Source of the DNA: Chitinophagaceae bacterium
GTDB taxonomy: Bacteria; Bacteroidota; Bacteroidia; Chitinophagales; Chitinophagaceae
DNA: 64,000 nt
Direction: 5' to 3'
Assembly: GCA_014379965.1 (NCBI GenBank)
Contig: JACMKU010000079.1
Location: forward strand, 1 to 64,000
The position numbers and the translations under genes are program-made. This document shows positions 11,389 through 62,663 of this stretch, piece by piece. The notes under the pieces were generated by a model. The model worked only from the letters and a program-made list of their open reading frames with translations. It ran no database searches and had not been told where the DNA came from. Position 1 is the first letter of the stretch; every line of letters begins with the position of its first letter.

Positions 11389-12432
11389 ATGTATCAAAAC
11401 TCCATTTATATTATTGGTGCCGGTAGCATTGTCAACGACGCGCATCTTCCTGCGTACAGGATCGCGGGCTATAACGTGCAGGGTATTTTTGATATCAACG
11501 AGGCGAAAGCCACGAAAGCGGCAACTTCTTTTTCTATTCCGAAAGTATTTTCAAGTATAGCGCGGATGGTAGAAGTCGCGCCTGGCAATGCTGTATTTGA
11601 TGTGGCCGTTCCCGGGTCGCAAACAATAGCTGTGCTCCAGCAGCTTCCAGAAGGCGCTTCTGTACTGTTGCAGAAACCAATGGGAGAGAACTTCGGCGAG
11701 GCAAAACAGATTCTCGAACTGGCACGGAGCAAGGATATGCTTGCCGCTATCAATTTCCAGTTACGCTATGCACCATATATCCTGGCGGCAAAGAAGTTTA
11801 TATGTGCCGGTAGCCTCGGGGATATCAACGATATTGAAGTAAATGTAAATGTTTACACACCCTGGCATTTATGGGATTTCCTGGTCTCTTCACCAAGGGT
11901 TGAAATCTTGTACCATAGTATTCATTACATCGACTTGATAAGAAATCTGCTGGGCAATCCGCAATCTGTTTACGCCAAAACGACTAAACATCCTTCAATG
12001 CCCCAACTGGCATCGGTACGCAGCAATATTATCATGGATTATGGTGAAATGATTGCGGCAAATATTCTTACAAATCATTGTCACATCTATGGAACGCCCA
12101 AACAGCAGTCCTATATCAAGATGGAAGGGAGTAAAGGAGCGATTAAGATAAATTTCGGGGCACTGATCGATTATCCACGCGGCGCTGCAGACAGTTTTGA
12201 ATATGTGTTGCTTGAAGACGGAAAAGAACCTGAATGGAAAGAAATGAACATCGAAGGCAGTTGGTTCCCGCATGCTTTTATCGGTAGCATGGAACAACTC
12301 TTGCTCGCTACCAACGGGAGCATTGAAAGGCCTGATAATAGTGTTGAAGATTGTATTTATACGATGGTCTGCACCGAGGCTGCCTACCTATCGAGCGCAA
12401 ATGGTGGAATTGCGTTAACCAACCTGACCTAA
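11389..12432 (+). CDS. Gfo/Idh/MocA family NAD(P)-dependent dehydrogenase
   Basis: 347 residues. The Rossmann motif IIGAGSIVNDAHLPAY is at the N-terminus; the usual EKP motif is LLQKPMGEN, keeping the catalytic Lys96 but with Gln in place of Glu. The C-terminal alpha/beta domain includes FQLRYAPYI and VEILYHSIHYIDLIRNLLG, with the catalytic-type His in YHSIHYID. Family members oxidize aldoses to lactones or interconvert inositols; D-apiose dehydrogenase also belongs here. With the lactonase directly upstream, an aldose-to-aldonate step is likely. Cytosolic. Substrate not determinable from sequence. Confidence 0.88.
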   Translation: MYQNSIYIIGAGSIVNDAHLPAYRIAGYNVQGIFDINEAKATKAATSFSIPKVFSSIARMVEVAPGNAVFDVAVPGSQTIAVLQQLPEGASVLLQKPMGENFGEAKQILELARSKDMLAAINFQLRYAPYILAAKKFICAGSLGDINDIEVNVNVYTPWHLWDFLVSSPRVEILYHSIHYIDLIRNLLGNPQSVYAKTTKHPSMPQLASVRSNIIMDYGEMIAANILTNHCHIYGTPKQQSYIKMEGSKGAIKINFGALIDYPRGAADSFEYVLLEDGKEPEWKEMNIEGSWFPHAFIGSMEQLLLATNGSIERPDNSVEDCIYTMVCTEAAYLSSANGGIALTNLT

Positions 12433-45947: not shown

Positions 45948-47495
45948 ATGCAAAAATTGCTTGTCATATTGGCTGGATTTTTATTGTGTTATTGTTCGGG
46001 TTATTCGCAGCCCAAGCAGACCCCATATATGTTGAAAGCGGCTAGTTTCAAACATTATGTTGAGTATTTCAACCAAATGGAGGATGAGAATATCAAGCAG
46101 GCTATACCAAATGACAGCGCATGGGCCTGGATGCAGAAAAACGTTCCTTTGTTTGAATGTCCTCAACAGAACTTTGTGGAAATATTTTATTACCGGTGGT
46201 GGACATTGCGCAAGCATATAAAAAAGACCGAAAAAGGATTTGTATTTACGGAGTTCCTGGTGCAGCGCAGCTACGCAGATAAGTATAATTTGATCGCAAG
46301 TGGCCTTGGTCACCATATTTATGAAAGCCGCTGGTTGCACGATAAGAAGTACATGGACGACAACCTCCTTGTCTGGTACCGTGGCAACAATGGTAAACCC
46401 ATGAACAAGCTGAGGTTTTATAGCAGCTGGAACATGGATGCCATATACAACCGCTATCTGGTTAATCGGGATAAGACCTTCATAGCAGATTTATTGCCTG
46501 ACTTGGTGGCGGATTATGCTGCCTGGGAAAACGAAAAGAAATCTTCGGGCGGACTATTCTGGCAGTTCGACGTGAGAGACGCTATGGAGGAGACTATCAG
46601 CGGAGGGCGGAGAGAAAAAAATCCGAGGCCTTCCATCAATGCATACATGTATGGGAATGCAAATGCATTGGCAGCCATGACAACGATTAGTGGGGGTTTA
46701 CATTTATCTAAGGCTATGATGTATGTTCTGAAAGCGGACAGCATAAAAATGATGGTTCAGGACAAGCTTTGGAACGCCAGTCATGAATTTTTCGAGGTAA
46801 GAAAGGAGCAAGGCGACACGCTGGCAAATGTGAGGGAGGAAATCGGCTTTATTCCGTGGTATTTTAATCTACCCGACAGCAACTACAACGTAGCCTGGAA
46901 ACATCTAATGGATAAGAAAACGTTCTGTGCGCCATTCGGTATCACCACCGCTGACAGAAGTCATCCCCAATTTCGTACACATGGCTGTTGTAATTGTGAG
47001 TGGGATGGTGCCGTGTGGCCCTTCGCTACTTCCCAAACCTTGACGGCGATGGCCAACCTTTTGAATTCACATCGGCAGAAGTATGTGGCGGACAGTAATT
47101 ACTTCGACCTTCTGGAGACATATGTGGAGTCGCAGTACTATCGTGGTCGCCCCTACATAGGTGAGTACCTGGATGAGAAGACTGGCTATTGGTTGAAAGG
47201 AGATGAAGAAAGAAGCAGGTATTACAATCATTCCACGTTTAACGACTTGATCATAACCGGGCTGGTGGGCCTGCGTCCGAGGGCGGATGATATCATCGAA
47301 GTGAAGCCATTACTGCCGGCCGGGAAGTGGGATTGGTTTTGTTTGGATAATGTCCTGTATCATGGAAAAAGTATCACTATCGTCTGGGATAAGAATGGAA
47401 CGAAATATAAGAAAGGGAAAGGATTGAGTGTCTTTGTCAACGGAAAGAAGGTGGCGGGTTCTTTACGTCTTGAAAAAGTGACGGGTAAACTATAA
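45948..47495 (+). CDS. (alpha/alpha)6-barrel glycosidase, candidate GH142 beta-L-arabinofuranosidase
   Basis: 515 residues, signal peptide to GYSQP. Landmarks of an MGH1-like six-hairpin barrel are FVEIFYYRWWTLRKHIKK, SSWNMDAIYNRYLVNRD, QFDVRDAMEETISGG and THGCCNCEWDGAVWPFATSQ. The C-terminal strand region fits a small beta domain. In RG-II chain D a beta-L-arabinofuranose caps DHA, so this enzyme would act before the propeller protein encoded upstream. The neighbour order supports the assignment; activity itself cannot be proven from sequence. Confidence 0.65.
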   Translation: MQKLLVILAGFLLCYCSGYSQPKQTPYMLKAASFKHYVEYFNQMEDENIKQAIPNDSAWAWMQKNVPLFECPQQNFVEIFYYRWWTLRKHIKKTEKGFVFTEFLVQRSYADKYNLIASGLGHHIYESRWLHDKKYMDDNLLVWYRGNNGKPMNKLRFYSSWNMDAIYNRYLVNRDKTFIADLLPDLVADYAAWENEKKSSGGLFWQFDVRDAMEETISGGRREKNPRPSINAYMYGNANALAAMTTISGGLHLSKAMMYVLKADSIKMMVQDKLWNASHEFFEVRKEQGDTLANVREEIGFIPWYFNLPDSNYNVAWKHLMDKKTFCAPFGITTADRSHPQFRTHGCCNCEWDGAVWPFATSQTLTAMANLLNSHRQKYVADSNYFDLLETYVESQYYRGRPYIGEYLDEKTGYWLKGDEERSRYYNHSTFNDLIITGLVGLRPRADDIIEVKPLLPAGKWDWFCLDNVLYHGKSITIVWDKNGTKYKKGKGLSVFVNGKKVAGSLRLEKVTGKL

Positions 47496-50315: not shown

Positions 50316-53300
50316 ATGAAAAAGATTGTAACGATACTCGTATTGATTGCCTGTGTTCAGCGACCGGCTGCACAGGTAACTGTTGCCAATCTCCGTTGCG
50401 AAATGTTGGTTAATCCTCAGGGGATTGATGTGAAGCAACCCAGATTGAGCTGGCAGCTGCAAAGCGAGGTTCGCAACATTGTCCAGGCGAGTTATCAACT
50501 ATTGGTTAGCAGCAGTGCCGAGGTCCTGAAGCAGAATAAGGGGGATGTATGGAATTCAGGTCTCGTCAGCAGCGATCAATCCCTTCATATATCCTACAAT
50601 GGACCAACGCTGCGACCTGGTAAGAAGTATTTCTGGAAAGTATTAGTGCGGACAAATAAAGGACCGGCTCAATCCAACCAGGTAGCTTCCTTTTCTACCG
50701 GATTGGAAAAGGATCAATGGGAGGCAAAATGGATCGGGTTTGACAAAGCTTCGGCCTGGGACAGTGTTACGCAGTGGTCACGGTTAAGTGCAAGATACCT
50801 GCGCAAGGAATTTCAGAGCCAACCCCAGGTAAAACGAGCCACGGTTTATATTTCCGGTTTGGGCATGTATGAATTGTACCTAAATGGCAGGAAGATTGGT
50901 GACCAGGTACTGGCACCTAATCCAACAGACTACCGCAAAACTTATTTCTATAATACACATGAGTTAACCTCGCAGGTAAAGACGGGTAACAATGCCATAT
51001 CGGTAGTGTTGGGCAATGGTCGGTTCTTTACGATGCGGCAGAATTATAAAACACAAAAGCATAATACATTCGGTTATCCAAAGCTCCTGCTACAGATGGT
51101 CATTGAGTATACAGACGGGACCAGCAAAACCGTAGTGAGTGATGAAAGCTGGAAGCTGAATGTGGACGGCCCCATTCGCACCAACAACGAATACGACGGC
51201 GAGGAATATGATGCTACAAGGGAATTCTATGGGTGGACGCAAGCTGGATATAACGACAGTAAGTGGATCCAACCCGAAGTGGTAGAGGCTCCTGGCGGTA
51301 AAATGGTGGCTCAGATGAGTGAGCCAATGAAAGTGATGCAAACCCTCAAGCCTGTGACTATAAAGAAAACTCCGAGTGGAAAGTATGTCCTGGATATGGG
51401 GCAGAATTTTGCGGGCTGGATCAAAATAAAGAACATCAACGGTAAGAAAGGAGAGAAGGTGACGCTTAGGTTTGCTGAAAGCCTGCAGTCAAATGGCGAA
51501 GTGTTTGTAGCCAATCTACGTGATGCGAAAGTGACCAATATTTATATCTTAAAAGGTACGGGAACAGAAAACTGGGAACCGTCTTTCGTTTACAATGGTT
51601 TCAGGTATGTTGAAATCTCGACCTTCCCTGGCATTCCCCTAATCAACCAGTTTGAAGGGAAGTTAGTGTACGATGCCATTGAAACAACAGGCTCCTTTCA
51701 AACAGATAATAGTACCATCAATCGTATTTATCAAAACGCATGGTGGGGCATTGCTTCGAATTACAAGGGCATGCCGGTTGACTGCCCGCAACGAAATGAG
51801 CGCCAACCATGGCTAGGGGATCGCACCGTAGGGTCACAAGGCGAAAGTTATTTATTTAACAATGCTGCCTTGTATGCAAAGTGGATGCAGGATATTGAAG
51901 ATAGTCAAACTGAAGAGGGAAGCATCCCCGATGTAGCACCAGCATTCTGGAATTATTACAGCGATGACGTAACCTGGCCCGCTGCATATATTTTTATCAG
52001 TAATAATTTATACAACCAGTTTGGTGATATCACACCTATCCGGAAGCATTATTTCTCCATGAAGCAGTGGATGATGTATATGAAGTCGAAGTACATGACC
52101 AAGTACATCGTTACCCGGGATAAATATGGTGATTGGTGTGTGCCCCCGGAAAGCCTCAATCTTATTCACGCAAAGGATACGAATCGTTTAACGGATGGTA
52201 AGCTGATAGCCACCGCCTACTACTATAAGTTGCTTTCATACATGGAGCGTTTTGCCAACCTCACGGATAATAAACAGGATGCTACGTATTATAGTTTATT
52301 GAGTGATAGTATCAGGGCGGCATTCCAGCAGACCTTTTATAATCCACAGAAAAGGCATTACAGTAATAATACCGTAACGGCTAACCTGCTGCCTTTGTAT
52401 TTTGGTATTTGTCCTGACTCATTGAGATCCGTCGTGTTTGAAAAGATCAGGGTAAAAATTCACGTAGAAAATCACGGGCATATCAGCACGGGTTTAATTG
52501 GCTCGCAATGGTTGATGCGGGGGTTAACAGAGTACGGTTACAGCGACCTGGCCTACATTCTTGCATCGAACAAAACTTATCCAAGCTGGGGATACATGGC
52601 CGAGAATGGCGCAACAACCATTTGGGAATTGTGGAACGGGAACACAGCCAACCCAGGAATGAACAGCCAGAATCATGTGATGTTGCTCGGTGACCTGCTC
52701 ACCTGGTTTTATGAGAACCTTGCCGGCATTCGCAGTAATAAAACAGCTGTTGCGTTTAAGAAGATCATCATGAAACCCACAACCCCCAATGGGCTGGGAC
52801 ATGTGAAAGCATCTTACAACAGCCTCCATGGTATCATCAGGAGCGAATGGAAGAATTCAGTTGACCGGTTCGAATGGACGGTCAGCATTCCGGCAAATAC
52901 ATCAGCCACAATTCATGTACCTGCAAACAGTCCTGAAGAAGTTACAGAGGGGACACGGACTATTGCTGGGCACAAAGAAGTAAAATTCATAAAATCGGAG
53001 GATGGAACCGTTGTATTGGAGGTGCCGTCTGGTAATTACGTGTTTACTACAAATAAGAAATGGAAGCGGGGGATTGTAAAACAGGAGTTCATTTTTGAGC
53101 GGGCATCCTTTCCTGAAAGTCATTCTGCCACCATTGCAGAAACACCTGCAGGTTTGATCGCTGCCTGGTTTGGCGGAACGAAAGAGGGAAACAAAGATGT
53201 GTGTATATGGACCAGCCGTTTCGAGAGCGGAAGGTGGACAGCTCCAGTAAAGGTTGCAGACGGCGTTATGAATGATACACTTCGTTATTCAACCTATAAT

Positions 53301-54107
53301 CCAGTTTTGTTTTATGCTCCCAATGGAGAATTATTATTGTTCTATAAAATTGGACCCAATGTGGCTGGCTGGACCGGCTGGATGATGCGCAGCAAAGACA
53401 ATGGAACAACATGGAGTAGAAGGGAAGCGCTGCCAGAAGGATTTTTAGGTCCGATCAAAAATAAACCAGTACTCGTCAATAGTGTGCTGCTTTGTCCATC
53501 CAGCACCGAGAAGAATGGATGGAAGACCCATGTCGAATTTACTTCGGATCTTGGAAGAACATGGACCAAGACAGAAGCCATCAATGACCCTAAGATCATA
53601 CAAGCCATTCAGCCAAGTATACTGAGTTATGCTGATGGCCGACTGCACATGCTGTGCCGCAGTCGTAACACTACACTAAACGAAAGCTGGAGTAGTGATG
53701 GCGGCAAAACATGGGGTGAGATGAAAGCTTCGGCACTGCCTAATAATAATTCAGGTACTGATGCCGTCACGTTAAAGGATGGTCGCCAGTTACTTGTGTA
53801 TAATCACTTGTTGCCCACGCCTGCCTGGGTGAACGGAAAAGGCCCACGCACTCCGTTGAATGTTGCCGTCAGTAAAGATGGTAAACTTTGGAATGCAGCA
53901 CTGGTGTTAGAAGATTCACCGATAAGCCAGTATTCATACCCTTCGGTTATTCAGGCAAAAGACGGAATGGTGCATATTGTTTATACCTGGCGGAGAGAAA
54001 AGATCAGGCATGTTGTGGTGGATCCGAGTAAGCTCGAATTGAAGGAAATTGTAAATAAGCAATGGCCGGGGGTCAGGAGCAATGTTGGAGCGACTACCGA
54101 TGATTAG
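50316..54107 (+). CDS. GH78 alpha-L-rhamnosidase fused to a sialidase-like (BNR) propeller
   Basis: 1263 residues with signal peptide to PAAQV. Residues 1 to about 910 are a complete GH78: LRCEMLVNPQGIDVKQPRL, DCPQRNERQPWLGD with general acid Glu495, and TTIWELWNG with Glu771 as base candidate. From about 915 an extra domain of about 350 residues begins (FERASFPESHSATIAE, GLIAAWFGGTKEGNKD) with Asp-box-like turns SKDNGTTWSR, TSDLGRTWTK and SSDGGKTWGE. This is a BNR_2/sialidase-type propeller. RG-II chain C is alpha-L-Rha-(1,5)-Kdo, so a rhamnosidase joined to a Kdo hydrolase is the natural reading. No frameshift is involved; it is one continuous frame. Confidence 0.9.
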   Translation: MKKIVTILVLIACVQRPAAQVTVANLRCEMLVNPQGIDVKQPRLSWQLQSEVRNIVQASYQLLVSSSAEVLKQNKGDVWNSGLVSSDQSLHISYNGPTLRPGKKYFWKVLVRTNKGPAQSNQVASFSTGLEKDQWEAKWIGFDKASAWDSVTQWSRLSARYLRKEFQSQPQVKRATVYISGLGMYELYLNGRKIGDQVLAPNPTDYRKTYFYNTHELTSQVKTGNNAISVVLGNGRFFTMRQNYKTQKHNTFGYPKLLLQMVIEYTDGTSKTVVSDESWKLNVDGPIRTNNEYDGEEYDATREFYGWTQAGYNDSKWIQPEVVEAPGGKMVAQMSEPMKVMQTLKPVTIKKTPSGKYVLDMGQNFAGWIKIKNINGKKGEKVTLRFAESLQSNGEVFVANLRDAKVTNIYILKGTGTENWEPSFVYNGFRYVEISTFPGIPLINQFEGKLVYDAIETTGSFQTDNSTINRIYQNAWWGIASNYKGMPVDCPQRNERQPWLGDRTVGSQGESYLFNNAALYAKWMQDIEDSQTEEGSIPDVAPAFWNYYSDDVTWPAAYIFISNNLYNQFGDITPIRKHYFSMKQWMMYMKSKYMTKYIVTRDKYGDWCVPPESLNLIHAKDTNRLTDGKLIATAYYYKLLSYMERFANLTDNKQDATYYSLLSDSIRAAFQQTFYNPQKRHYSNNTVTANLLPLYFGICPDSLRSVVFEKIRVKIHVENHGHISTGLIGSQWLMRGLTEYGYSDLAYILASNKTYPSWGYMAENGATTIWELWNGNTANPGMNSQNHVMLLGDLLTWFYENLAGIRSNKTAVAFKKIIMKPTTPNGLGHVKASYNSLHGIIRSEWKNSVDRFEWTVSIPANTSATIHVPANSPEEVTEGTRTIAGHKEVKFIKSEDGTVVLEVPSGNYVFTTNKKWKRGIVKQEFIFERASFPESHSATIAETPAGLIAAWFGGTKEGNKDVCIWTSRFESGRWTAPVKVADGVMNDTLRYSTYNPVLFYAPNGELLLFYKIGPNVAGWTGWMMRSKDNGTTWSRREALPEGFLGPIKNKPVLVNSVLLCPSSTEKNGWKTHVEFTSDLGRTWTKTEAINDPKIIQAIQPSILSYADGRLHMLCRSRNTTLNESWSSDGGKTWGEMKASALPNNNSGTDAVTLKDGRQLLVYNHLLPTPAWVNGKGPRTPLNVAVSKDGKLWNAALVLEDSPISQYSYPSVIQAKDGMVHIVYTWRREKIRHVVVDPSKLELKEIVNKQWPGVRSNVGATTDD

Positions 54108-54118
54108 AGCCTTAACCC

Positions 54119-55690
54119 ATGCAGAATCTTCCCATCATCGATATTGCCATCATCATCATTTACCTATTAGCAATGGTGGGGGTGGGGATTTATTTTTCGA
54201 GACGAAACAAGAATAGCGAGCAATTTACCAAGGCATCGGGCAAGATTCCAGGCTGGGCAATCGGTTTATCGATCTACGCCACTTTTTTAAGCAGTAATAC
54301 TTTTTTGGGTGTTCCGGGTAAAGCATTTGGTAGTAACTGGAATGCTTTTGTTTTTAGCCTCTCTATGCCACTGGCAGCATGGATAGCATCGAAATATTTT
54401 GTTCCATTTTACCGGAACACTGGTGAAATATCGGCCTATACACATTTGGAAAAAAGATTCGGAACCTGGGCAAGGACCTATGCGGTCATCTGTTTTTTAC
54501 TTACACAGTTTGCAAGAATGGGTACCATCTTCTTTGGTATTGCACTAAGCTTACAGGCATTGACTGGTTTCTCAATGTCATCCATCATGATCGTAATGGG
54601 AATTTGCATTATCATTTATACAGTATTGGGCGGAATGGAAGCAGTGATATGGACGGAAGTAGCACAGGGCATCATTAAAACATTGGGCGCCTTACTGATA
54701 TTGTTTTTGGTGATAAAGGAAATTCCAGGCGGGTTTTCCAAAGTAATCGAGATTGCCCGGTCAGATAATAAGTTAAGTCTTGGCAGCTTTTCGCTGAACT
54801 TTACGGAATCCACTTTTTGGGTGATTTTGTTCTATGGCTTCTTTATCAATTTGAATAATTTCGGCATGGACCAGAATTATATTCAACGTTACCATACCGC
54901 TAAATCTTCCAAACAAGCAGGCCAATCGGTTTGGCTATGCGTTGTCATGTATGTTCCTGCTTCCCTTTTATTTTTTATTATCGGCACATCGCTTTATGCA
55001 TACTATAATATTTATCCTGAATTGATAGAGCCTGTTAAACTGAATGTGGCGGCGGAAAGATTAGGAGACGTTTTTACGTCTCAACAGGCAAACGATGTTG
55101 CAAATTCTTTAGGTCCCTCGGATTATGGTGATAAAGTGCTACCGCATTTTATGGTAACAAAAGTGCCGACTGGGTTGGTAGGATTGATTGTATCGGCTTT
55201 GTTATCAGCGGCGATGAGCACTATCAGTTCCAATATGAATGCTTCAGCAACGGTATTCACAATGGATATTTATAAGAAGTATTTTAAACCTGATATCAAT
55301 GATAAGCAACAACTGTATGTTCTGCATGCCGCTACCGTTGTGTTTGGACTGATCGGTCTAGGTGCAGGTCTTGCGATGATAGGGGCGAAAAGCTTATTGG
55401 ATACCTGGTGGGAATTGTCGGGAATTTTTGCCGGTGGCATGCTGGGTCTTTTCTTATTGGGTTTGATCAGCCGGCAAAGCCGGAATGCGGAAGCGATAAC
55501 GGGAACCATTATAGGGATCGTTGTTATCCTTTGGATGACATTTTCCGACAGGTTAAGTGGCAAGTATGATTTTTTGAGGAGCCCTCTGCATAAGAATATG
55601 ATCATAGTAGTAGGAACGCTGGCGATCTTTTTGGCGGGTTTGATGATGACAAGATTCAGAAGAAGAAAACTTGAGCCGGGTAATGCCTAA
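54119..55690 (+). CDS. Sodium:solute symporter (SSS family), first copy
   Basis: 523 residues with 13-14 membrane segments. The start DIAIIIIYLLAMVGVGIYFS and the motif SSNTFLGVPGKAFGSNWNAF identify the SSS family; GGMEAVIWTEVAQGIIKTLG is also characteristic. It opens the downstream catabolic block, 11 bases after the GH78 fusion. Some SSS members carry sialic acids; in this locus an analogous 2-keto-3-deoxy acid (Kdo or DHA) or a neutral sugar may be the cargo. A second SSS at 61107 brackets the enzyme cassette. Confidence 0.93.
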   Translation: MQNLPIIDIAIIIIYLLAMVGVGIYFSRRNKNSEQFTKASGKIPGWAIGLSIYATFLSSNTFLGVPGKAFGSNWNAFVFSLSMPLAAWIASKYFVPFYRNTGEISAYTHLEKRFGTWARTYAVICFLLTQFARMGTIFFGIALSLQALTGFSMSSIMIVMGICIIIYTVLGGMEAVIWTEVAQGIIKTLGALLILFLVIKEIPGGFSKVIEIARSDNKLSLGSFSLNFTESTFWVILFYGFFINLNNFGMDQNYIQRYHTAKSSKQAGQSVWLCVVMYVPASLLFFIIGTSLYAYYNIYPELIEPVKLNVAAERLGDVFTSQQANDVANSLGPSDYGDKVLPHFMVTKVPTGLVGLIVSALLSAAMSTISSNMNASATVFTMDIYKKYFKPDINDKQQLYVLHAATVVFGLIGLGAGLAMIGAKSLLDTWWELSGIFAGGMLGLFLLGLISRQSRNAEAITGTIIGIVVILWMTFSDRLSGKYDFLRSPLHKNMIIVVGTLAIFLAGLMMTRFRRRKLEPGNA

Positions 55691-55781
55691 AACAGGAATA
55701 TCCTACCGCAGAATAGTTAGATTTCACATTTTCCAAGGCTTGCAAAAATTGAATATTTATTGATTCTAAAATTGGGTTATT

Positions 55782-56759
55782 ATGTCTGAAAAGAAATTTG
55801 TGCCGGTTATGATCACACCATTTAACCTGAAGGCGAAGGTTGATTTGGATGCTGTAAGTACATTGATCGATTTTTACCTGGCTGCCGGCGTAAAAGGATT
55901 TTTTGCGAACTGCCTCAGCAGCGAAATGTATAGCATCACAGAAGACGAACGGCTTGAATTGACAAGGCATGTTGTAAAATATGTAAATGGTCGTGTGCCT
56001 GTTGTTGCTACCTCTTCATTTGGATTAACAATCGAAGATAAGGCCGAGTTTACAAAAAGAATTTTCGATACGGGCATTGCTGCGGCCATCTTGATCACGG
56101 GACACTATGCAAATGTGGAGGACAGTGACGATATACTGCTTCGCAATTTTGATAGGATGTTTAAACTTACTGGGAGCATCCCTTTAGGTATGTATGAATG
56201 CCCGGCGCCTTATAAGAGGATTATTGGAACGGAAGTCTTCAAAACCTTGCTGAGCGCAAACCGGATGGTATATCATAAGGATACCTCTATTGATCTGGAG
56301 AAGGTGAAGGCAAAACTGGATATAGTAAAAGCTGAAAAGAACGATCTTGAATTTTATGATGCACATTCACCAAATGCTATGTACAGTTTGCAAATGGGTG
56401 CAAAAGGAATGTCGAGCATCAGCGGAAATTTCTATCCGGAAATTTTGGTTTGGATGGTAAACAATGCGACGGACCCCAGTAAACAGGAGGAAGTAAAATG
56501 GCTGCAATCAGAGATCAGCCGGGTTGATCCATTGATCCATATTGCCTATCCGATGAGTGCAAAGTATTTTCTACGTAAGAGAGGCTTACCGGTAAGAACA
56601 ATAAGCCGGGCAACTGCTTTGGAACTTACACCTGAACAGAAGAAGACGCTGGATGGAATTCATGATAATTTTATTGGTTGGTGTGAAAAGCTTGATATTA
56701 AACCAGTGGATGTTGAATCGCTTATGTTACCAAAGGTTCCATTAGACCCTGCCATTTAA
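55782..56759 (+). CDS. DHDPS/NAL-superfamily aldolase, divergent
   Basis: 325 residues, cytosolic. Schiff-base Lys166 in VYHKDTS and the supporting Tyr138 in GMYECPAP mark a class I pyruvate-type aldolase. The usual GTTGE loop is replaced by NCLSSE at residues 43-48, so the carboxylate-binding end of the pocket is altered and the acceptor is probably unusual. The extra length lies at the C-terminus. It is separated from the SSS gene by 91 bases and from the Fe-dehydrogenase by 14. Retro-aldol cleavage of a 2-keto-3-deoxy acid to pyruvate plus an aldehyde is the expected reaction. Confidence 0.87.
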   Translation: MSEKKFVPVMITPFNLKAKVDLDAVSTLIDFYLAAGVKGFFANCLSSEMYSITEDERLELTRHVVKYVNGRVPVVATSSFGLTIEDKAEFTKRIFDTGIAAAILITGHYANVEDSDDILLRNFDRMFKLTGSIPLGMYECPAPYKRIIGTEVFKTLLSANRMVYHKDTSIDLEKVKAKLDIVKAEKNDLEFYDAHSPNAMYSLQMGAKGMSSISGNFYPEILVWMVNNATDPSKQEEVKWLQSEISRVDPLIHIAYPMSAKYFLRKRGLPVRTISRATALELTPEQKKTLDGIHDNFIGWCEKLDIKPVDVESLMLPKVPLDPAI

Positions 56760-56773
56760 TCTTAAAGATAAAA

Positions 56774-57925
56774 ATGCTTGATACTTCTTTGAAAATAAGT
56801 TTTCCCGGCAAGCTTGTCTTTGGGAACGGAACCCTATTGCAGTTAGCGGATGATTTGGTCCAATTAAAATCCAAGAAAGTTTTTATTACCACTATTGAGC
56901 CATTGAAGCCTGCCATCTATGAATTCCTTGAAAAGCTTACTCAAAACAAGGTTGAGGTCTTATCTGATACTTCTATTGTACAGGAACCAACGTTCAGTGA
57001 TTTTGAAAGGCTAATGACTAAAGTGAGACCATTTGATCCGGATTTAGTGATTGGAATTGGAGGGGGAAGCGTATTAGATATTGCAAAACTGGTAGCTGCA
57101 CAATTAGGTAATGCACAGAAGTTAAGTGATTATGTAGGCATCAATTTGTTAAAGGGAAGAGGAAGGAAATTGGTTTGTGTACCCGCTACTTCCGGAACGG
57201 GCAGCGAGGTTTCTCCCAATGCAATATTGGTAGATGATGCAGATAACCAGAAGAAAGGGATTATCAGTCCATTTCTTGTACCGGATATTGTTTATGTTGA
57301 CCCTTTGCTTACTTTATCTGTGCCGGCATCCATTACTGCTGCAACAGGACTAGATGCATTGACCCATTGTCTCGAAGCCTATACCAATAAGTTTTCGCAA
57401 TCCTTTATTGACATCTATGCCTATGAAGGGATGCGACTGATCGCCGGGAATATTATCAATGCGGTGGAAGACGGGAATCATATTGGGGCACGGGAGAAAG
57501 TTGCCATGGGCAGCTTGCTGGGAGGGTTCTGTCTCGGGCCTGTGAATACGGCCGGAGTACATGCACTATCGTATCCACTGGGGAGCATGTTTCATCTGGC
57601 ACATGGTCTATCAAACGCCTTGCTTCTGCCGTATGTAATGGAGTATAATATACCTGCGGCCACAAAGAAGTATGCTGAAGTTGCGATGGCACTAGGGTGT
57701 GAGAGAAGGGGTAGCGATGAGGAAACAGCGCTCGCTGGGGTGCAACGGGTGAGGGATTTAGTTAAAGCTTGCGGTATTCCAGCGACATTAAAAGAGGTGA
57801 ATGTGCCTTTATCAGCGATCCCGCAAATGGCAGCCGATGCCATGAAGATTCAGAGATTATTGAAGAATAATCCCAGGCTTATTGAAGAAAAAGATGCAAT
57901 AGAAATTTATAAAGCTGCTTATTAA
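56774..57925 (+). CDS. Iron-containing alcohol dehydrogenase (group III)
   Basis: 383 residues, cytosolic. NAD-binding GIGGGSVLDIAKLVA, the TSGTGSEVSPNAIL segment, LDALTHCLEAY and the metal-ligand stretch HALSYPLGSMFHLAHGLSNA are all present. Family members reduce short aldehydes such as lactaldehyde or succinic semialdehyde. It lies between two aldolase genes, and the next ATG follows its stop codon directly. The natural role is to reduce an aldehyde made by one of the aldolases; lactaldehyde (from deoxy-sugars) and 4-oxo-threonate (from DHA) are the leading candidates. Confidence 0.92.
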   Translation: MLDTSLKISFPGKLVFGNGTLLQLADDLVQLKSKKVFITTIEPLKPAIYEFLEKLTQNKVEVLSDTSIVQEPTFSDFERLMTKVRPFDPDLVIGIGGGSVLDIAKLVAAQLGNAQKLSDYVGINLLKGRGRKLVCVPATSGTGSEVSPNAILVDDADNQKKGIISPFLVPDIVYVDPLLTLSVPASITAATGLDALTHCLEAYTNKFSQSFIDIYAYEGMRLIAGNIINAVEDGNHIGAREKVAMGSLLGGFCLGPVNTAGVHALSYPLGSMFHLAHGLSNALLLPYVMEYNIPAATKKYAEVAMALGCERRGSDEETALAGVQRVRDLVKACGIPATLKEVNVPLSAIPQMAADAMKIQRLLKNNPRLIEEKDAIEIYKAAY

Positions 57926-58768
57926 ATGAATACGGGTAAAAAATATACCGGCGTGATTGTTCCGGCTGTGACGCCGCTTACAGCGAAGCTTCACCTGGAT
58001 GAGTCGGCCGTGGCAAGGATGTTATCGTTGTTTTACCAGTATAACATCTCTCCCTTTATCCTGGGCACAACTGGTGAATCGGCGTCATTGTCACTTCAGC
58101 TGAAGAAAGACTATGTGCTGGCTGCGGAGAGAAATAAGAAAATGGGTACACTTCTTTATGCCGGCATAGGGTCTAATGTACTGACGGAAAGTATTGAGTT
58201 TGCGGATTATTGTGCTATTCACGCGATAGATGTGGTCGTCGCTACATTGCCGTCTTATTATCCTTTGACTGAAAAACAGATGTTAAAGTATTTTCTTCAA
58301 CTGGCGGATAGTATCAAATTGCCGCTTTTTCTTTACAACATTCCCGCCACCACTCACATGAGCCTGCCATTGCATATAGTCGATGAGTTAAGCCGACACA
58401 AAAATATTGTAGGAATAAAAGACAGTGAGAGAAGTGAGGAGAGGATGCGGGAATCGTTGAAATTGTGGAGGGGCAGAGATGATTTTCATTATATTCTGGG
58501 TTGGGCCGTTAAAAGTTCGGAGGCTTTATTACTAGGCGCTGACGGACTCGTGCCTAGCACCGGTAACCTTTACCCCGATGTCTATGCGGGCATGCTGAAT
58601 GCCTTCAAACTTGGCGACAAAGTGAAATTAAGTGAAATGCAGGCACTCGGAGATGAATATGGAGCACTCTACCAAACGGAACGCACACTTGGGGAGAGCC
58701 TGCGCGCTTTAAAATTATTGATGAAGGAGAAAGGCTTGTGTGAAGAGTACGTGATGCCCCCATTATAA
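57926..58768 (+). CDS. DHDPS/NAL-superfamily aldolase, canonical
   Basis: 280 residues, cytosolic. It has the canonical GTTGE loop (residues 47-51), Tyr137 in YNIPATT and Schiff-base Lys165 in GIKDSE. It starts on the base after the Fe-dehydrogenase stop. It is not a lysine-biosynthesis gene by context: it is embedded among acid-sugar enzymes. Together with the divergent aldolase at 55782 it could let the cell split two different 2-keto-3-deoxy acids, for instance Kdo and DHA, or KDG and a 6-deoxy analogue. Confidence 0.9.
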   Translation: MNTGKKYTGVIVPAVTPLTAKLHLDESAVARMLSLFYQYNISPFILGTTGESASLSLQLKKDYVLAAERNKKMGTLLYAGIGSNVLTESIEFADYCAIHAIDVVVATLPSYYPLTEKQMLKYFLQLADSIKLPLFLYNIPATTHMSLPLHIVDELSRHKNIVGIKDSERSEERMRESLKLWRGRDDFHYILGWAVKSSEALLLGADGLVPSTGNLYPDVYAGMLNAFKLGDKVKLSEMQALGDEYGALYQTERTLGESLRALKLLMKEKGLCEEYVMPPL

Positions 58769-58771
58769 AGA

Positions 58772-59827
58772 ATGAATTTTAATATGAATAAAAAACCAAT
58801 CATTGCTATCACCATGGGCGACCCCGCCAGTATTGGTCCCGAGATAGCTGTGAAAGCTTTACTTGAAAAAAGTATACATGATATCTGCAGGCCCCTCCTG
58901 GTCGGTGATGTAGCAGTATTCGATCAGATCATCGGCAAGCTGAAACTCGGAGCCAGGGTAAATGCCATTCAAAAGGTAAATGAGGCACAATTTGATCGGG
59001 GCGTGATCGATGTATTTGATCTAAATATTACAGATCTCAACAAGTTGCATTTCGGAAAGATTGATGCAATGTGTGGCGAAGCATCTTTCCAGGCAGTGAA
59101 GAAAGTGATTGAACTGGCTTTAGCTGGGGAAGTGGATGCTACTGTGACAGGTCCAATCAACAAAAAATCTATTAATGAGGCGGGACATCATTTTGCCGGG
59201 CATACAGAGATCTATGCACACTATACCGGCACAAAAAAGTATGCTATGCTACTCGTTGAGGATAATATCAATGTCATTCATGTGAGTACCCATGTATCGC
59301 TACGTCAAGCTTGTGATCTGGTAAAGAAGGACAGGATTGTGCAGGTGATCGAATTAATTGTTGACGGCTTGAAACGATTGGGAAAAACCAATCTGAAAAT
59401 AGGAGTGGCCGGGCTCAATCCCCATGCGGGAGACAGCGGACTGTTTGGTACTGAAGATGACCTGGAGATACTGCCGGCAGTGCTGGAGGCAAGAAATCTT
59501 GGGTATGACGTGGAAGGCCCCGTTCCCCCGGACACCATGTTTGCAAAGGCAGCCATGGGTGCTTATGGCGGGGTAGTGGCCATGTATCACGACCAGGGGC
59601 ATATTCCATTTAAGCTCGCGGGATTTAAGTGGAACGCAGAAAAGCAACAGATGGACAGTGTCAAAGGCGTGAATATAACATTAGGCTTGCCAATTATTCG
59701 TACTTCAGTCGATCACGGAACTGCATTTGAGATTGCAGGCAAAGGAATTGCCAGTGCAGACGCCATGATATTAGCTATTGAAAGCGCAGTTCAATTAAGT
59801 AAAACCAGAATAACCGTTGAGTCATGA
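58772..59827 (+). CDS. pdxA2: PdxA-family dehydrogenase, probably PdxA2-type for a phosphorylated tetronate
   Basis: 351 residues; ATG 58772 or 58784 both possible. MGDPASIGPEIAVKALLE, GHTEIYAHYTG, GLNPHAGDSGLFG, AMYHDQGHIPFKLAGF and RTSVDHGTAFEIAGKG are the family signatures, including the metal-binding histidines. Its overlap by four bases (ATGA) with a DUF1537 kinase gene marks the PdxA2 type, which oxidizes and decarboxylates D-threonate 4-phosphate or a related compound to dihydroxyacetone phosphate, rather than the vitamin B6 enzyme. No other pdx gene is in the window. Confidence 0.85.
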   Translation: MNFNMNKKPIIAITMGDPASIGPEIAVKALLEKSIHDICRPLLVGDVAVFDQIIGKLKLGARVNAIQKVNEAQFDRGVIDVFDLNITDLNKLHFGKIDAMCGEASFQAVKKVIELALAGEVDATVTGPINKKSINEAGHHFAGHTEIYAHYTGTKKYAMLLVEDNINVIHVSTHVSLRQACDLVKKDRIVQVIELIVDGLKRLGKTNLKIGVAGLNPHAGDSGLFGTEDDLEILPAVLEARNLGYDVEGPVPPDTMFAKAAMGAYGGVVAMYHDQGHIPFKLAGFKWNAEKQQMDSVKGVNITLGLPIIRTSVDHGTAFEIAGKGIASADAMILAIESAVQLSKTRITVES

Positions 59828-60918
59828 TCGCAGTAATCGCAGATGATTTTACCGGCGCGGCCGAACTGGCCGGGATCAGCTTGCGGTACGGGTTGAAAGT
59901 TGGTATTAGTTTAAATAATGAGATTGATACCGATGTTGATGTGCTGGTTGTTAATACAGACAGTAGGTCTTTGAAGAAGAAGGAGGCGCTCGAAGCGACA
60001 GCCGGCGCAATACAGAGAGTACTGGCGCTGAAACCGGGGATCCTTTATAAAAAAATTGATTCCGTGCTACGTGGTTATGTTCTGGAGGAATTGGAGATAC
60101 AGTTGCAATTGACTGGTTTGAATAAAGTTTTGGTAGTGCCTGCTAATCCAACCTTGGGGAGAACGGTCACTAATGGGCACTATTTTGTTGATGGGAAGCC
60201 AATACATGAATCTGCATTTTCGACTGATCCTGAATTCCCGGTCAAGAGTTCGGAAATTAAGAGAATGCTTAACAGTGATACGATGGAAGTAATCAAGCCT
60301 TCCGATCCATTACCACGAGAGGGCATCGTAGTTGGAGAGTGTACGAGCGAAAATGATTGCAAGGCATGGGCTGATAAGATCGACAACAGTTGGATACTAG
60401 CGGGTGCGGGGGATTTTTATGCTGCATTACTCGGAAGAAAGTTTCGACCACAAGAACAGTCTGGCTTCCAATGGGAAGGTCCACACCTGTATGTGAGTGG
60501 CACATCTTTACGGGAGCGGAAGGAGTTTATAAGAGAAATTGACAGAAAGCAGCATTGTGTTTCGTACTTGCCGCGAATAATTGATGAAGACTGGCTCAAT
60601 GAGACAGTAGACATATTGAGAGCGAGGCAAAAATTAATTATTGCGATTGATGATGCTGGCGATACGGCTTCGGTACTGCGGGGCCGAATGGCAGAAGCCG
60701 TAACCGGGATCCTTGCGAGGGTGCACGTCTGGGAGATATTCATTGAAGGAGGCTCTACTGCGGCGGCGATTTTGAAGGAAATGAAGATTGAGAAACTGTC
60801 TCCGATTAATGAATTAGAAAGAGGGGTAGTGAGGATGAAGGCCAATGATCTATTTATTACTGTAAAACCAGGAAGCTATGAGCTGCCGGAGGAGATAGAA
60901 CGGTTATATAACCCCTAA
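59824..60918 (+). CDS. DUF1537-family four-carbon acid sugar kinase (D-threonate kinase type)
   Basis: 364 residues, cytosolic. The N-terminal ADDFTGAAELAG (residues 6-17) and YKKIDSVLRG are family markers; the C-terminal lobe has IEGGSTAAAILKEM and the terminal VKPGSYELPEEIE. It is shorter than the usual roughly 420. The family phosphorylates D-threonate, L-threonate, erythronate and similar acids; with PdxA2 the established product is DHAP. The overlap with the upstream gene implies translational coupling. Low-complexity and repeat DNA follow the stop. Confidence 0.9.
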   Translation: MIAVIADDFTGAAELAGISLRYGLKVGISLNNEIDTDVDVLVVNTDSRSLKKKEALEATAGAIQRVLALKPGILYKKIDSVLRGYVLEELEIQLQLTGLNKVLVVPANPTLGRTVTNGHYFVDGKPIHESAFSTDPEFPVKSSEIKRMLNSDTMEVIKPSDPLPREGIVVGECTSENDCKAWADKIDNSWILAGAGDFYAALLGRKFRPQEQSGFQWEGPHLYVSGTSLRERKEFIREIDRKQHCVSYLPRIIDEDWLNETVDILRARQKLIIAIDDAGDTASVLRGRMAEAVTGILARVHVWEIFIEGGSTAAAILKEMKIEKLSPINELERGVVRMKANDLFITVKPGSYELPEEIERLYNP

Positions 60919-60951
60919 GTTTAACGAGAAGGAAAAATAGGGAGAGAAAGA

Positions 60952-61075
60952 GAAACAGAAACAGGAACAGAAACAGAAACAGAGCGAGAAACAGAGCGCC
61001 TGCCCGCCGTAGCGTAAGTGGAGGCGGGAGGGTGGGCAACCCATAACTCATTTGCTTCGCTTCGCTCGCAATGAT
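60952..61075. repeat. Cluster of low-complexity and dispersed palindromic repeats
   Basis: The 188-base gap after the kinase holds three elements. GAAACA-type hexamers run from 60952 to about 60997. A GC-rich stem follows: CCCGCC at 61003-61008 with GGCGGG at 61023-61028, and TGCCC at 61001 with GGGCA at 61034-61038. Then TTGCTTCGCTTCGCTCGCAA at 61052-61071, whose ends pair. I recognise the last two as repeat types scattered in many Bacteroidota genomes. They might act as a terminator between the kinase and the second symporter; no gene is seen. Confidence 0.75.
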
Positions 61076-61106
61076 GAATCATAACCCGTAACTATTACTA
61101 GATCGA

Positions 61107-62663
61107 ATGAACCACCTACACCCGATAGACTATATCATCATCTTGCTGGTCTTGGGTATTACCCTCTACCTGGGCTTCCGGTTTTCTAACAGGCAGAATA
61201 CAACCGAGGCATATTTCCTATCTAAAGGCAATTTCCCTGCTTGGGCTCTGGGCTTGTCTCTATTATCAACACTAATTAGCAGCGTGACCTTCCTGGGCTA
61301 CCCGGCGCAGGGCTATACCAGTAACTGGATATTACTGGTGCAGGGTCTTATGGTTCCCATCGTCTTATTGGGTGTAATCTGGTTTATCGTACCATTGTTC
61401 CGGAAAGTCATAGGGCTCAGCACGTATGAGTATTTTGAGAAACGGTTTGGAAGTTTTGCCCGGTACTACACCTCGTCGTCATTTATTATTCGGCAGTTTG
61501 CTGGAATGGGTACCGTACTGTTCCTCATTGCCGTTGCCATACATGAAATGACCAATATCAGCCCTTTCATTATTCTTGCCGTGGTTGGTTTCGTATTGGT
61601 AATAGTGAATCTGAAAGGGGGAATGCAGGCCGTCATCTGGCTGGATGTGTTCCAGGGGTTCATGTTATTTGCCAGCGGCATCATCTGCCTTGGCGTTATC
61701 TTATTTTCGATCAAGGGCGGTGTTCCTGAAGCCATAAGCGTCGCATCGGCGAATGACCGTACCGGTTTCGGTCCTTATGATATCCGATTCACGCAACTTA
61801 GTTTGATTGTGATGATCGTTAACGGGGCTTTCTATGCAATTCAGAAATATGGCACTGACCAAACCGTGGTGCAACGTTATCTCACCGCTAAAACAGATAA
61901 GGCAGCTATTAAAGCTTCATTGCTGGGTATTTCACTTACGATTCCTATCTGGGCCATCTTCATGTTTATCGGCACAGCTTTGTTTGTTTTCTATAAGCAA
62001 CAACCATTACCCGCGGGAATGAAGGCAGAAGCCGTCTTCCCACATTTTATAATGACGCAGCTGCCCACAGGCGTTGTGGGTTTCATCGTAGCGGCATTAA
62101 TCAGTGCAGCTATCTGCAGCCTTAGCGCCGACCTGAATTCGCTGGCGGCGGTGGGCATCCAGGATTATTATAGGAAGCTACGACCGAATAAAACCGACAA
62201 GCAATATCTCTTCACCAGCAAGTTATTTGTAGTCATATCGGGAATAGTATCGATCGTTATTGGGGGATTGTACCTGCTTGCTGGGAATGAAGGCGTACTA
62301 GGAGTGATCTTCACCATTTATGCCATTTTTTCCGGGGGTATTGTTGGTATCTTCCTACTAGGGCTCTTTAGCGCAAGGGCCAATCGGCAAGGTGTTAACA
62401 TTGGTATCATCACATGTATTTTGTTTACGGCATGGGCTTTTTTCACAAGTACTCCCTTGGGTGTGAAGAATCCACAGCTGCTGCTTGACATGGGTGATTT
62501 TAACTTTACACACCATAAACTAATGCTTGGTGTTTATAGCCACCTGGTCGTGATCGTTGTCGGTTATGTTGCCAGTCTCTTTTTCCCGAAACCCGTGCTT
62601 GAAAAGAATCTATTATATAGCAGTTGGAAAGAAAATAGAAAATATGATGACATTCAAAAATAA
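61107..62663 (+). CDS. Sodium:solute symporter (SSS family), second copy
   Basis: 518 residues with 13-14 membrane segments. Start DYIIILLVLGITLYLGFRFS, motif SSVTFLGYPAQGYTSNWILL and GGMQAVIWLDVFQGFMLF show the same family as the gene at 54119, but the two are distant copies. It follows the repeat cluster, so it may have separate expression, though no clear promoter was found. It would import another released sugar or acid. The next gene starts five bases after the stop. Confidence 0.92.
   Translation: MNHLHPIDYIIILLVLGITLYLGFRFSNRQNTTEAYFLSKGNFPAWALGLSLLSTLISSVTFLGYPAQGYTSNWILLVQGLMVPIVLLGVIWFIVPLFRKVIGLSTYEYFEKRFGSFARYYTSSSFIIRQFAGMGTVLFLIAVAIHEMTNISPFIILAVVGFVLVIVNLKGGMQAVIWLDVFQGFMLFASGIICLGVILFSIKGGVPEAISVASANDRTGFGPYDIRFTQLSLIVMIVNGAFYAIQKYGTDQTVVQRYLTAKTDKAAIKASLLGISLTIPIWAIFMFIGTALFVFYKQQPLPAGMKAEAVFPHFIMTQLPTGVVGFIVAALISAAICSLSADLNSLAAVGIQDYYRKLRPNKTDKQYLFTSKLFVVISGIVSIVIGGLYLLAGNEGVLGVIFTIYAIFSGGIVGIFLLGLFSARANRQGVNIGIITCILFTAWAFFTSTPLGVKNPQLLLDMGDFNFTHHKLMLGVYSHLVVIVVGYVASLFFPKPVLEKNLLYSSWKENRKYDDIQK

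What the first reader, a model, noticed from the sequence alone, without database searches (positions are those of the whole stretch)
54119..60918. A possible complete route from the RG-II sugar DHA to pyruvate and DHAP
Six adjacent genes encode a sodium symporter, two NAL-type aldolases, an Fe-alcohol dehydrogenase, a PdxA-type dehydrogenase and a DUF1537 kinase. Working through DHA (3-deoxy-D-lyxo-2-heptulosaric acid): retro-aldol between C3 and C4 gives pyruvate and a four-carbon aldehyde acid with the D-threo configuration; reducing its aldehyde gives D-threonate; DUF1537 kinase plus PdxA2 is the established route from D-threonate to DHAP and CO2. Every gene type needed is present, and the upstream operon carries a candidate DHA-releasing enzyme. 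I know of no described DHA catabolic pathway.
Basis: partly seen in the sequence, partly recalled or inferred. Interest (0 to 1): 0.85.

Follow-up and report, generated by a model that had tools for sequence, protein, structure and literature searches.

The report
Probable breakdown pathway for pectin's DHA
A conserved block of five neighbouring genes in plant-degrading Bacteroidota bacteria probably imports DHA, a rare sugar acid from the pectin RG-II, and turns it into the ordinary metabolites pyruvate and DHAP, a step for which we found no published pathway.

Summary
54119-60918 encodes SSF1, NAL1, Fe-ADH, NAL2, PdxA and a DUF1537 kinase, in an RG-II locus whose GH143 and GH142 genes are the two halves of BT1020.

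The DHA reading is supported, with corrections. SSF1-NAL1 is a separable module, perhaps for Kdo.

The kinase tracks GH143:
- 25 of 25 kinase-positive Chitinophagaceae carry strong GH143, against 57 of 294 overall.
- 46 of 48 further genomes carry it; the two exceptions lack NAL2 and Fe-ADH beside the kinase.
- In 120 Mucilaginibacter genomes, kinase, NAL2 and GH143 mark the same 37, one by a GH143 fragment. OiaK marks 12 of those 37.

By known routes only DHA gives pyruvate plus a four-carbon acid; reduction yields D-threonate.

Against: 32 of 57 GH143-positive Chitinophagaceae lack the kinase; GH33, not GH143, is the usual hydrolase neighbour; no phylogenetic correction; nothing tested biochemically.

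The parts
44129..45943 (+). GH143-type DHA hydrolase (BT1020 N-terminal half) with sialidase-like CBM; candidate source of free DHA
   Evidence: PF24067 382.6 bits; 5mqr residues 23-611, E 2.4e-218
45948..47495 (+). GH142-type beta-L-arabinofuranosidase (BT1020 C-terminal half); would expose DHA on chain D
   Evidence: 5mqr residues 618-1093, E 4.2e-218; GH number recalled
56774..57925 (+). Fe-type alcohol dehydrogenase; proposed reductase of the D-threuronate aldehyde to D-threonate
   Evidence: PF00465 and PF25137; candidate metal ligands D194, H198, H263, H277 invariant in 69 of 69 (roles recalled); first gene of the core in 70 of 80 loci
57926..58768 (+). NAL2: DHDPS/NAL-family class I aldolase; proposed DHA aldolase (pyruvate + D-threuronate)
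   Evidence: PF00701 118.1 bits; AlphaFold pLDDT 94.5, VIA-align Z 33-36 to NAL, KDG aldolase and DHDPS chains; K165-D-S-E168 and R173 invariant in 72 of 72, position 169 basic in 69 of 72
58772..59827 (+). PdxA2-like dehydrogenase/decarboxylase; proposed D-threonate-4-phosphate dehydrogenase giving DHAP + CO2
   Evidence: closest PDB chains 2hi1 (PdxA 2, 295 bits), 4jqp (277.9) and 6e85 (D-threonate 4-phosphate dehydrogenase, 272.5); next chain 176.7; His174, His218, His273 invariant in 77 of 77; a second PdxA elsewhere in the genome
59824..60918 (+). Short DUF1537 sugar-acid kinase; proposed D-threonate 4-kinase
   Evidence: PF07005 127.6 bits; best NCBIfam NF047819 D-threonate kinase 131.3 bits, below cut-off 450; two-domain DUF1537 fold, pLDDT 94.1, TM about 0.8 to 3dqq/5dmh but 0.5 to 4xfr/4xgj
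61107..62663 (+). SSF2: sodium:solute symporter, proposed inner-membrane DHA importer
   Evidence: PF00474; directly after the kinase in 74 of 80 loci
54119..55690 (+). SSF1: sodium:solute symporter of a second, separable module (possibly Kdo)
   Evidence: PF00474; in 13 of the 80 core loci
55782..56759 (+). NAL1: DHDPS/NAL-family protein of the second module (possibly Kdo aldolase)
   Evidence: PF00701 98.4 bits; in 15 of the 80 loci; SSF1 within three genes upstream in 19 of 22 NAL1 genes of at least 60% identity, GH33 in 15 of 22
50316..54107 (+). GH78 fused to a sialidase-like (BNR_2, here called GH33 by inference) domain; perhaps chain C (Rha-Kdo) processing
   Evidence: Bac_rhamnosid domains plus PF13088 BNR_2 309 bits; GH numbers and substrate not tested

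Best explanation
The five genes 56774-62663 form a dedicated pathway for DHA released from RG-II side chain D. GH142 removes beta-L-arabinofuranose and GH143 releases DHA. SSF2 imports it. NAL2 cleaves C3-C4 by a Schiff-base retro-aldol to pyruvate and D-threuronate. The Fe-dehydrogenase reduces the aldehyde to D-threonate with NAD(P)H. The DUF1537 kinase makes D-threonate 4-phosphate. PdxA2 oxidises and decarboxylates it to DHAP + CO2, regenerating NADH. Net: DHA + ATP -> pyruvate + DHAP + CO2, redox-neutral if both dehydrogenases use the same cofactor. Shown: gene content, order, conservation, predicted folds, conserved motifs, co-inheritance with GH143. Inferred: every substrate and the direction of each reaction.
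For: Conserved unit: NAL2-PdxA-kinase contiguous in 73 of 73 loci holding both NAL2 and the kinase, Fe-ADH-NAL2-PdxA-kinase in order in 70 of 80, with Chitinophagaceae, Spirosoma, Larkinella, Mucilaginibacter, Pedobacter, Pontibacter and Bacteroidales among the record titles. Co-inheritance with GH143: 25 of 25 kinase-positive Chitinophagaceae against 57 of 294 overall (hypergeometric P 9e-21, uncorrected for phylogeny); 46 of 48 further genomes, one by a fragment. In 120 Mucilaginibacter genomes (13 of which are also among those 48) the kinase is in 37, NAL2 in the same 37, strong GH143 in 36 plus a fragment in the 37th, and none of the other 83 has a strong GH143 match. In 9 of those 36 the two genes lie on different contigs or about 190 kb or more apart, so linkage alone does not explain it. 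The two GH143-negative genomes have PdxA-kinase without NAL2 and Fe-ADH in the locus (L079, L113). OiaK, another RG-II sugar-acid kinase, is in only 12 of the 37. In Larkinella and Spirosoma loci GH143 lies a few genes upstream of the core, and in L094, L102 GH142 is directly upstream. Chemistry: by known routes only C7 DHA gives pyruvate + a C4 acid; Kdo gives C5, hexuronates and deoxyhexoses C3, pentoses C2 (recalled chemistry).
Against: No activity data. 32 of 57 strong GH143-positive Chitinophagaceae lack the kinase, and only 2 of 10 strong GH143-positive genomes in the class sample have this kinase type, so GH143 does not require the core. Immediate neighbours favour another hydrolase: within the 80 loci (10 kb flanks where available) a GH33 domain is in 30, GH142 or GH143 in 18, and GH33 stands directly before Fe-ADH in 22 loci against 2 for GH142. 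Genome-wide co-occurrence was tested for GH143 and OiaK only, not for GH33 or other RG-II hydrolases, so DHA is singled out by chemistry and not by genetics. G338 keeps NAL2 and SSF2 without kinase, PdxA or Fe-ADH beside them, and G541 keeps only Fe-ADH. Kinase and PdxA scores lie below the specific NCBIfam cut-offs. G583 is a 2.2-Mb assembly, so its lack of GH143 may be incompleteness. Aceric acid, with no known route, was not worked through.
Confidence: 0.77

Rival explanations
1. The core serves another RG-II sugar acid, above all Kdo: NAL2 cuts Kdo to pyruvate and D-arabinose, and Fe-ADH, kinase and PdxA process something else.
For: A GH33 domain, the likelier Kdo-releasing type, stands directly before Fe-ADH in 22 of the 70 loci with Fe-ADH-NAL2, GH142 in 2; GH33 is in 30 of 80 loci, GH142 or GH143 in 18. 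Co-occurrence with GH33 across whole genomes was not tested.
Against: PdxA2 and DUF1537 kinases act on four-carbon acids (recalled); Kdo cleavage gives a five-carbon aldose that needs neither. SSF1-NAL1, found behind GH33 in 15 of 22 NAL1 genes, is a better Kdo candidate where present. In L094 and L102 the direct upstream neighbour is GH142, a chain-D enzyme. What the GH33 domain cleaves is itself untested.
Confidence: 0.12
2. NAL1 is the DHA aldolase and NAL2 acts elsewhere, or both share the job, as the reader left open.
For: NAL1 lies before Fe-ADH here and in 12 of 24 further Chitinophagaceae kinase loci, directly in 11. SSF1-NAL1 lies near GH143 in six core-less genomes (L142-L147).
Against: NAL1 accompanies the core in only 15 of 80 loci while NAL2 does in 73 of 80. 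NAL2 is in all 37 core-positive Mucilaginibacter genomes. NAL1 has SSF1 within three genes upstream in 19 of 22 and GH33 in 15 of 22 cases.
Confidence: 0.07
3. PdxA and kinase are a general D-threonate (or erythronate) salvage pair, and NAL2 plus Fe-ADH are an unrelated KDR/KDF-type aldolase and lactaldehyde reductase for RG-II rhamnose or fucose.
For: Fe-ADH scores 226.2 bits against lactaldehyde reductase, below its cut-off 523. L079 and L113 show that a PdxA-kinase pair can stand without NAL2.
Against: NAL2-PdxA-kinase contiguity in 73 of 73 loci holding NAL2 and kinase and identical genome sets for NAL2 and kinase in Mucilaginibacter argue for one pathway. Rhamnose and fucose occur widely in pectins, so the tie to GH143 would be unexplained.
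Confidence: 0.08

Closest known systems
D-threonate catabolism, DtnK-PdxA2 (Zhang et al. 2016 PNAS, recalled; not held)
   Same: DUF1537 kinase next to a PdxA2-type dehydrogenase, proposed same last two steps to DHAP + CO2
   Different: Here preceded by an aldolase and a reductase that would make D-threonate from a C7 acid; kinase short (364 aa) and below the curated D-threonate kinase cut-off
Galactarate/glucarate pathway GarL-GarR-GarK (recalled)
   Same: Same logic: retro-aldol of a 2-keto-3-deoxy-aldarate to pyruvate + aldehyde acid, reduction, phosphorylation
   Different: One carbon longer substrate; NAL-family and Fe-ADH enzymes instead of HpaI-type aldolase and beta-hydroxyacid dehydrogenase; needs a decarboxylating dehydrogenase at the end
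D-apiose pathway end, OiaK-OiaX (NF042436, NF042437)
   Same: DUF1537 kinase for another RG-II sugar, on the same contig here (L003:12554-15101)
   Different: RuBisCO-like decarboxylase instead of PdxA2, no aldolase beside it; distribution looser (13 of 120 Mucilaginibacter at E below 1e-100)
RG-II degradome of Bacteroides thetaiotaomicron, BT1020 GH143/GH142 (Ndeh et al. 2017, recalled; not held)
   Same: Same chain-D hydrolases (5mqr)
   Different: Two separate genes here; the control genome Bacteroides ihuae has GH143 but no PF07005 kinase, so the core is absent from the one Bacteroides control tested
YagE / KDG aldolases and N-acetylneuraminate lyases (PDB 2v8z, 4uxd, 5c54)
   Same: Fold, Schiff-base lysine, tyrosine and GTTGE-type motif of NAL2 (residue roles recalled)
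   Different: K-D-S-E, then R/K/Q, three residues and an invariant R in NAL2, not seen in the YagE and DHDPS chains aligned; a candidate site for the distal carboxylate (inference)

Membership tests
DHDPS/NAL class I aldolase family (NAL2) | PF00701 match and fold | tested here: met
   118.1 bits against cut-off 22.1; Z 35.6 over 273 residues, rmsd 1.9
DHDPS/NAL class I aldolase family (NAL2) | Schiff-base lysine, catalytic tyrosine and GTTGE motif | tested here: met
   K165, Y137, G47-E51 invariant in 72 of 72; roles recalled
4-hydroxy-tetrahydrodipicolinate synthase DapA (NAL2) | curated equivalog cut-off TIGR00674, 206 bits | tested here: not met
   123.7 bits
DHA aldolase (proposed) | pyruvate release from DHA | not testable with these tools
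   needs enzyme assay
DUF1537 sugar-acid kinase | N-terminal PF07005 domain and two-domain fold | tested here: met
   127.6 bits; TM about 0.8 to 3dqq and 5dmh, 0.5 to 4xfr and 4xgj
DUF1537 sugar-acid kinase | C-terminal nucleotide-binding domain PF17042 at Pfam cut-off | tested here: not met
   26.0 against 28.3 bits; but the fold match covers both domains and E308, G309, G310, K348, P349, G350, S351, Y352 are invariant in 81 of 81
D-threonate kinase DtnK (NF047819) | curated equivalog cut-off 450 bits | tested here: not met
   131.3 bits; next best 3-oxo-tetronate kinase 77.3
D-threonate-4-phosphate dehydrogenase (NF002891) | curated cut-off 583 bits | tested here: not met
   329.3 bits; yet closest chains are 2hi1, 4jqp, 6e85 at 272-295 bits, next 176.7
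PdxA family | PF04166 and metal-binding histidines | tested here: met
   339.9 bits; H174, H218, H273 invariant in 77 of 77 (roles recalled)
Fe-type alcohol dehydrogenase | PF00465/PF25137 and D-x3-H...H...H ligands | tested here: met
   D194, H198, H263, H277 invariant in 69 of 69; ligand roles recalled from FucO
GH143 DHA hydrolase | BT1020 N-terminal propeller homology over full length | tested here: met
   residues 20-602 align to 5mqr 23-611; activity not tested

The most novel reading that the evidence does not exclude
Bacteroidota carry a previously undescribed, dedicated DHA catabolic pathway (importer, DHA aldolase, threuronate reductase, D-threonate kinase, PdxA2), co-inherited with GH143. 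Beside it in part of the Chitinophagaceae stands a parallel GH33-SSF1-NAL1 module for the other RG-II ulosonic acid, Kdo, so that one locus both releases and fully consumes the two keto-deoxy sugars of chains C and D.
Probability: 0.58. Interest if true: 0.83.

Novelty: new variant of a known kind. Interest (0 to 1): 0.76.

Why it matters
In plants DHA is known only from RG-II (passage of PMC12168206), and how any organism uses it after release is undescribed in the papers searched here. The gene set gives named, small, expressible candidates for every step. It would supply enzymes to detect and make DHA, for which standards are lacking (same review), and would explain why some RG-II degraders could use chain D carbon and others not. 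It also shows how two known modules, a galactarate-like aldolase-reductase front end and the D-threonate kinase-dehydrogenase back end, combine into a new route.

Tried and rejected
Rejected: that the kinase is truncated; its model shows both domains. Rejected: that this PdxA must be the housekeeping B6 enzyme; a second PdxA lies on contig C179. Rejected: that PF07005 hits near GH143 in G065 and G080 support the finding; they match OiaK. The two other PF07005 genomes of the class sample, G202 and G207, have no GH143, and the genes at the hit match neither this kinase nor OiaK at 1e-8. Rejected: that apparent gaps in G355 (NAL2) and G360 (kinase) are real; they are ORF-picking artefacts in my script. 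Led nowhere: an FAA_hydrolase gene directly before NAL1 in the five loci tested did not settle the NAL1 substrate; paper searches (searches found no paper; 6, 12, 30, 31, 78, 79 and the 20 of 107 listed in 47 showed none on the pathway, from listings and abstract starts). Not done: phylogeny-corrected test; whole-genome co-occurrence with GH33 and other RG-II hydrolases; Spirosomaceae background; 32 of the 80 loci were not asked for GH143 in their genomes. Rows dropped before counts: 11 weak PF24067 genomes (E above 1e-60) were not counted as GH143, 16 Mucilaginibacter genomes with only weak short matches were not counted, and G588 has only a short fragment and is stated apart, G599 (E 6.5e-4) was not counted as OiaK; NAL1-like genes under 60% identity (such as L113, L017) were left out.

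Full report
Observation. The window is positions 1-64000 of contig C133 (99,164 bases) of a 4.73-Mb, 221-contig genome. The same-genus genome G503 has its kinase on a contig of the same length and at the same coordinates as a record titled Chitinophagaceae bacterium, so the source is very probably Chitinophagaceae. Around the finding lie RG-II-type enzymes: apiosidase 41630, GH143 44129, GH142 45948, a GH2 protein 47498 and a GH78 fused to a sialidase-like domain, here called GH33 by inference, at 50316. GH143 and GH142 are the two halves of BT1020, aligned to 5mqr 23-611 and 618-1093. Downstream on the contig come GH141, GH127, and OiaX-OiaK homologues of the D-apiose route.

Anatomy of the conserved unit. 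Of the 80 loci 66 have all five, 70 have Fe-ADH-NAL2-PdxA-kinase in order, and NAL2-PdxA-kinase are contiguous in the 73 of 73 that hold both NAL2 and the kinase. SSF2 directly follows the kinase in 74 of 80. Of the 14 incomplete loci 8 are cut by a contig end; the others are L079 and L113 (no NAL2, Fe-ADH or SSF2), L088, L104 and L119 (no SSF2) and L141 (no Fe-ADH). NAL1 is in 15 and SSF1 in 13 of the 80. Among 22 NAL1 genes of at least 60% identity in the loci, SSF1 lies within three genes upstream in 19 and GH33 in 15. A LacI regulator stands directly before Fe-ADH in L098 and L115, and an AraC regulator is divergent in L101.

Link to GH143. In 294 Chitinophagaceae genomes 25 have this kinase and 57 have strong GH143 (E below 1e-60); all 25 are among the 57 (hypergeometric P 9e-21, not corrected for relatedness). 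In 18 of the 25 the two genes lie within 50 kb on one contig, in 4 they are 256 kb or more apart, in 3 on different contigs (from the coordinates). I then asked for GH143 in the genomes of 48 of the 80 loci, mainly outside Chitinophagaceae (two are Chitinophaga): 46 have it, one of them (G588) only as a fragment. The two without are those of L079 and L113, whose kinase loci lack NAL2 and Fe-ADH; this is a small natural control, with the caution that G583 is a 2.2-Mb assembly.

Genus-level test. In 120 genomes of the genus of L101 (record title Mucilaginibacter lacusdianchii) the kinase is in 37, NAL2 in the same 37 at E below 1e-45, and strong GH143 in 36 of these plus a fragment in the 37th, G588. 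None of the 83 others has a strong match (Fisher 7e-30, uncorrected). Thirteen of the 37 were already among the 48, so the tests overlap. Of the 36, 27 have the genes within 60 kb, 4 are about 190 kb to 2.7 Mb apart and 5 are on different contigs, so linkage alone does not make the pattern. As a contrast, OiaK, which serves another RG-II sugar, is found at E below 1e-100 in 13 of 120: 12 of the 37 and 1 of the 83. RG-II sugar modules are therefore not all-or-none, and the core is tied to GH143 more tightly than OiaK is.

Results against. The reverse does not hold: 32 of the 57 GH143-positive Chitinophagaceae lack the kinase, and in the class sample only G000 and G110 of 10 strong GH143-positive genomes have this kinase type; the PF07005 hits in G065 and G080 are OiaK. 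I read stretches of 16 of those 32. Six have SSF1-NAL1 in an otherwise typical RG-II locus (L142-L147). G567 has SSF1-NAL1 beside a GH143 only 42% identical. G403, G307, G468, G357, G502 and G563 show neither aldolase in the stretches read. G541 keeps only Fe-ADH. G338, whose fetched stretch stops just short of its GH143 gene, keeps NAL2, SSF2, NAL1 and SSF1 without kinase, PdxA or Fe-ADH. G412 was read around a distant NAL-like gene (32% identity) away from its GH143. These organisms may leave DHA unused or use another route. Immediate neighbours also speak less clearly for DHA than the genome counts: within the 80 loci a GH33 domain is in 30, GH142 or GH143 in 18; GH33 is the gene directly before Fe-ADH in 22 loci, NAL1 in 13, GH142 in 2. 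Whole-genome co-occurrence with GH33 was not tested. The two side chains C and D are probably processed in the same locus, so this does not decide between Kdo and DHA, but it keeps the Kdo rival alive.

Chemistry. [quoted passage not shown] chain D ends in beta-1,5-Araf (passage in PMC12282258). Retro-aldol between C3 and C4 gives pyruvate and a C4 aldehyde acid. With C5 left and C6 right in the Fischer projection, reduction and renumbering from C7 give D-threonate. Kdo would give D-arabinose, hexuronates and deoxyhexoses C3 aldehydes, pentoses glycolaldehyde (recalled); aceric acid, with no known route, was not worked through. DHA best explains an aldolase, an aldehyde reductase and a C4-acid kinase/dehydrogenase together. 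The scheme is the one-carbon-longer analogue of the galactarate route (GarL, GarR, GarK; recalled).

Enzymes. NAL2 models at pLDDT 94.5 and aligns with NAL, KDG aldolase and DHDPS chains at Z 33 to 36, so the fold does not choose among them. Its lysine is followed by an invariant D-S-E, a residue basic in 69 of 72, and R173 invariant in 72 of 72, not seen in the YagE and DHDPS chains aligned: a candidate distal-carboxylate site (inference). PdxA is closest to 2hi1, 4jqp and 6e85 (272-295 bits; next chain 176.7), and the genome has a second PdxA. The kinase is short, its C domain misses the Pfam cut-off, but its model (pLDDT 94.1) matches whole DUF1537 structures, with TM about 0.8 for 3dqq and 5dmh and 0.5 for 4xfr and 4xgj, and the motifs listed in the membership test are invariant in 81 sequences. 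Fe-ADH keeps the four presumed metal ligands (roles recalled). The specific NCBIfam cut-offs for D-threonate kinase and D-threonate-4-phosphate dehydrogenase are not met, so I do not file the proteins as DtnK or PdxA2 proper.

Literature. Searches for DHA with catabolism, GH143/Kdo/DHA, heptulosaric with aldolase, rhamnogalacturonan II with threonate, DUF1537 with pectin or threonate and related terms showed no described DHA pathway. I saw listings and abstract starts for these (20 of 107 papers), and passages of PMC10580937, PMC12168206, PMC12282258 and PMC6353982. The 2016 DUF1537 paper and the 2017 RG-II paper are not held and are recalled.

Verdict. The pathway most likely runs through 57926-58768 as aldolase and 61107-62663 as importer. 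It is a new combination of known enzyme kinds, hence a new variant of a known kind, with untested biochemistry.

Noticed in passing
window 50316-56759; L142-L147: GH33 (or GH78-GH33 fusion), SSF1 and NAL1 recur together, also in genomes without the DHA core: a candidate Kdo release, import and aldolase module; an FAA_hydrolase gene stands before NAL1 in five loci tested.
   Followed up: partly
contig C133 about 74554-77101 (L003:12554-15101): RuBisCO-like OiaX and DUF1537 OiaK homologues of D-apiose catabolism, below their NCBIfam cut-offs (500 and 404 of 700 bits), further along the same contig.
   Followed up: partly
window 7039-12432: Two class III CoA-transferases, an SBP-like protein, a fuconolactonase-like amidohydrolase and a Gfo/Idh dehydrogenase form an unassigned catabolic set in an RG-II locus; perhaps for another rare sugar such as aceric acid or a methylated sugar.
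   Followed up: no
window 35630-37276: 548-aa protein without Pfam match whose relatives lie near the DHA core in 14 of 80 loci, several of them also with SusC/SusD.
   Followed up: no
L003:557-2872: Esterase-like domain fused to a xylose-isomerase-like TIM barrel, directly after SSF2 here and present in 35 of 80 core loci; sometimes split in two genes.
   Followed up: no
L003:3129-5639: GH141 protein fused to a C-terminal L-rhamnose mutarotase (RhaM) domain.
   Followed up: no
L079, L113: PdxA-kinase pairs without NAL2 and Fe-ADH, next to a PQQ dehydrogenase, TIM isomerase and MFS transporter (L079) or a pyridoxamine-phosphate oxidase (L113): other uses of the pair.
   Followed up: partly
window 13829-16474 and 12442-13827: Two proteins of 881 and 461 aa without any Pfam match inside the RG-II locus; relatives of the larger recur near GH142 in several Mucilaginibacter loci.
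   Followed up: no
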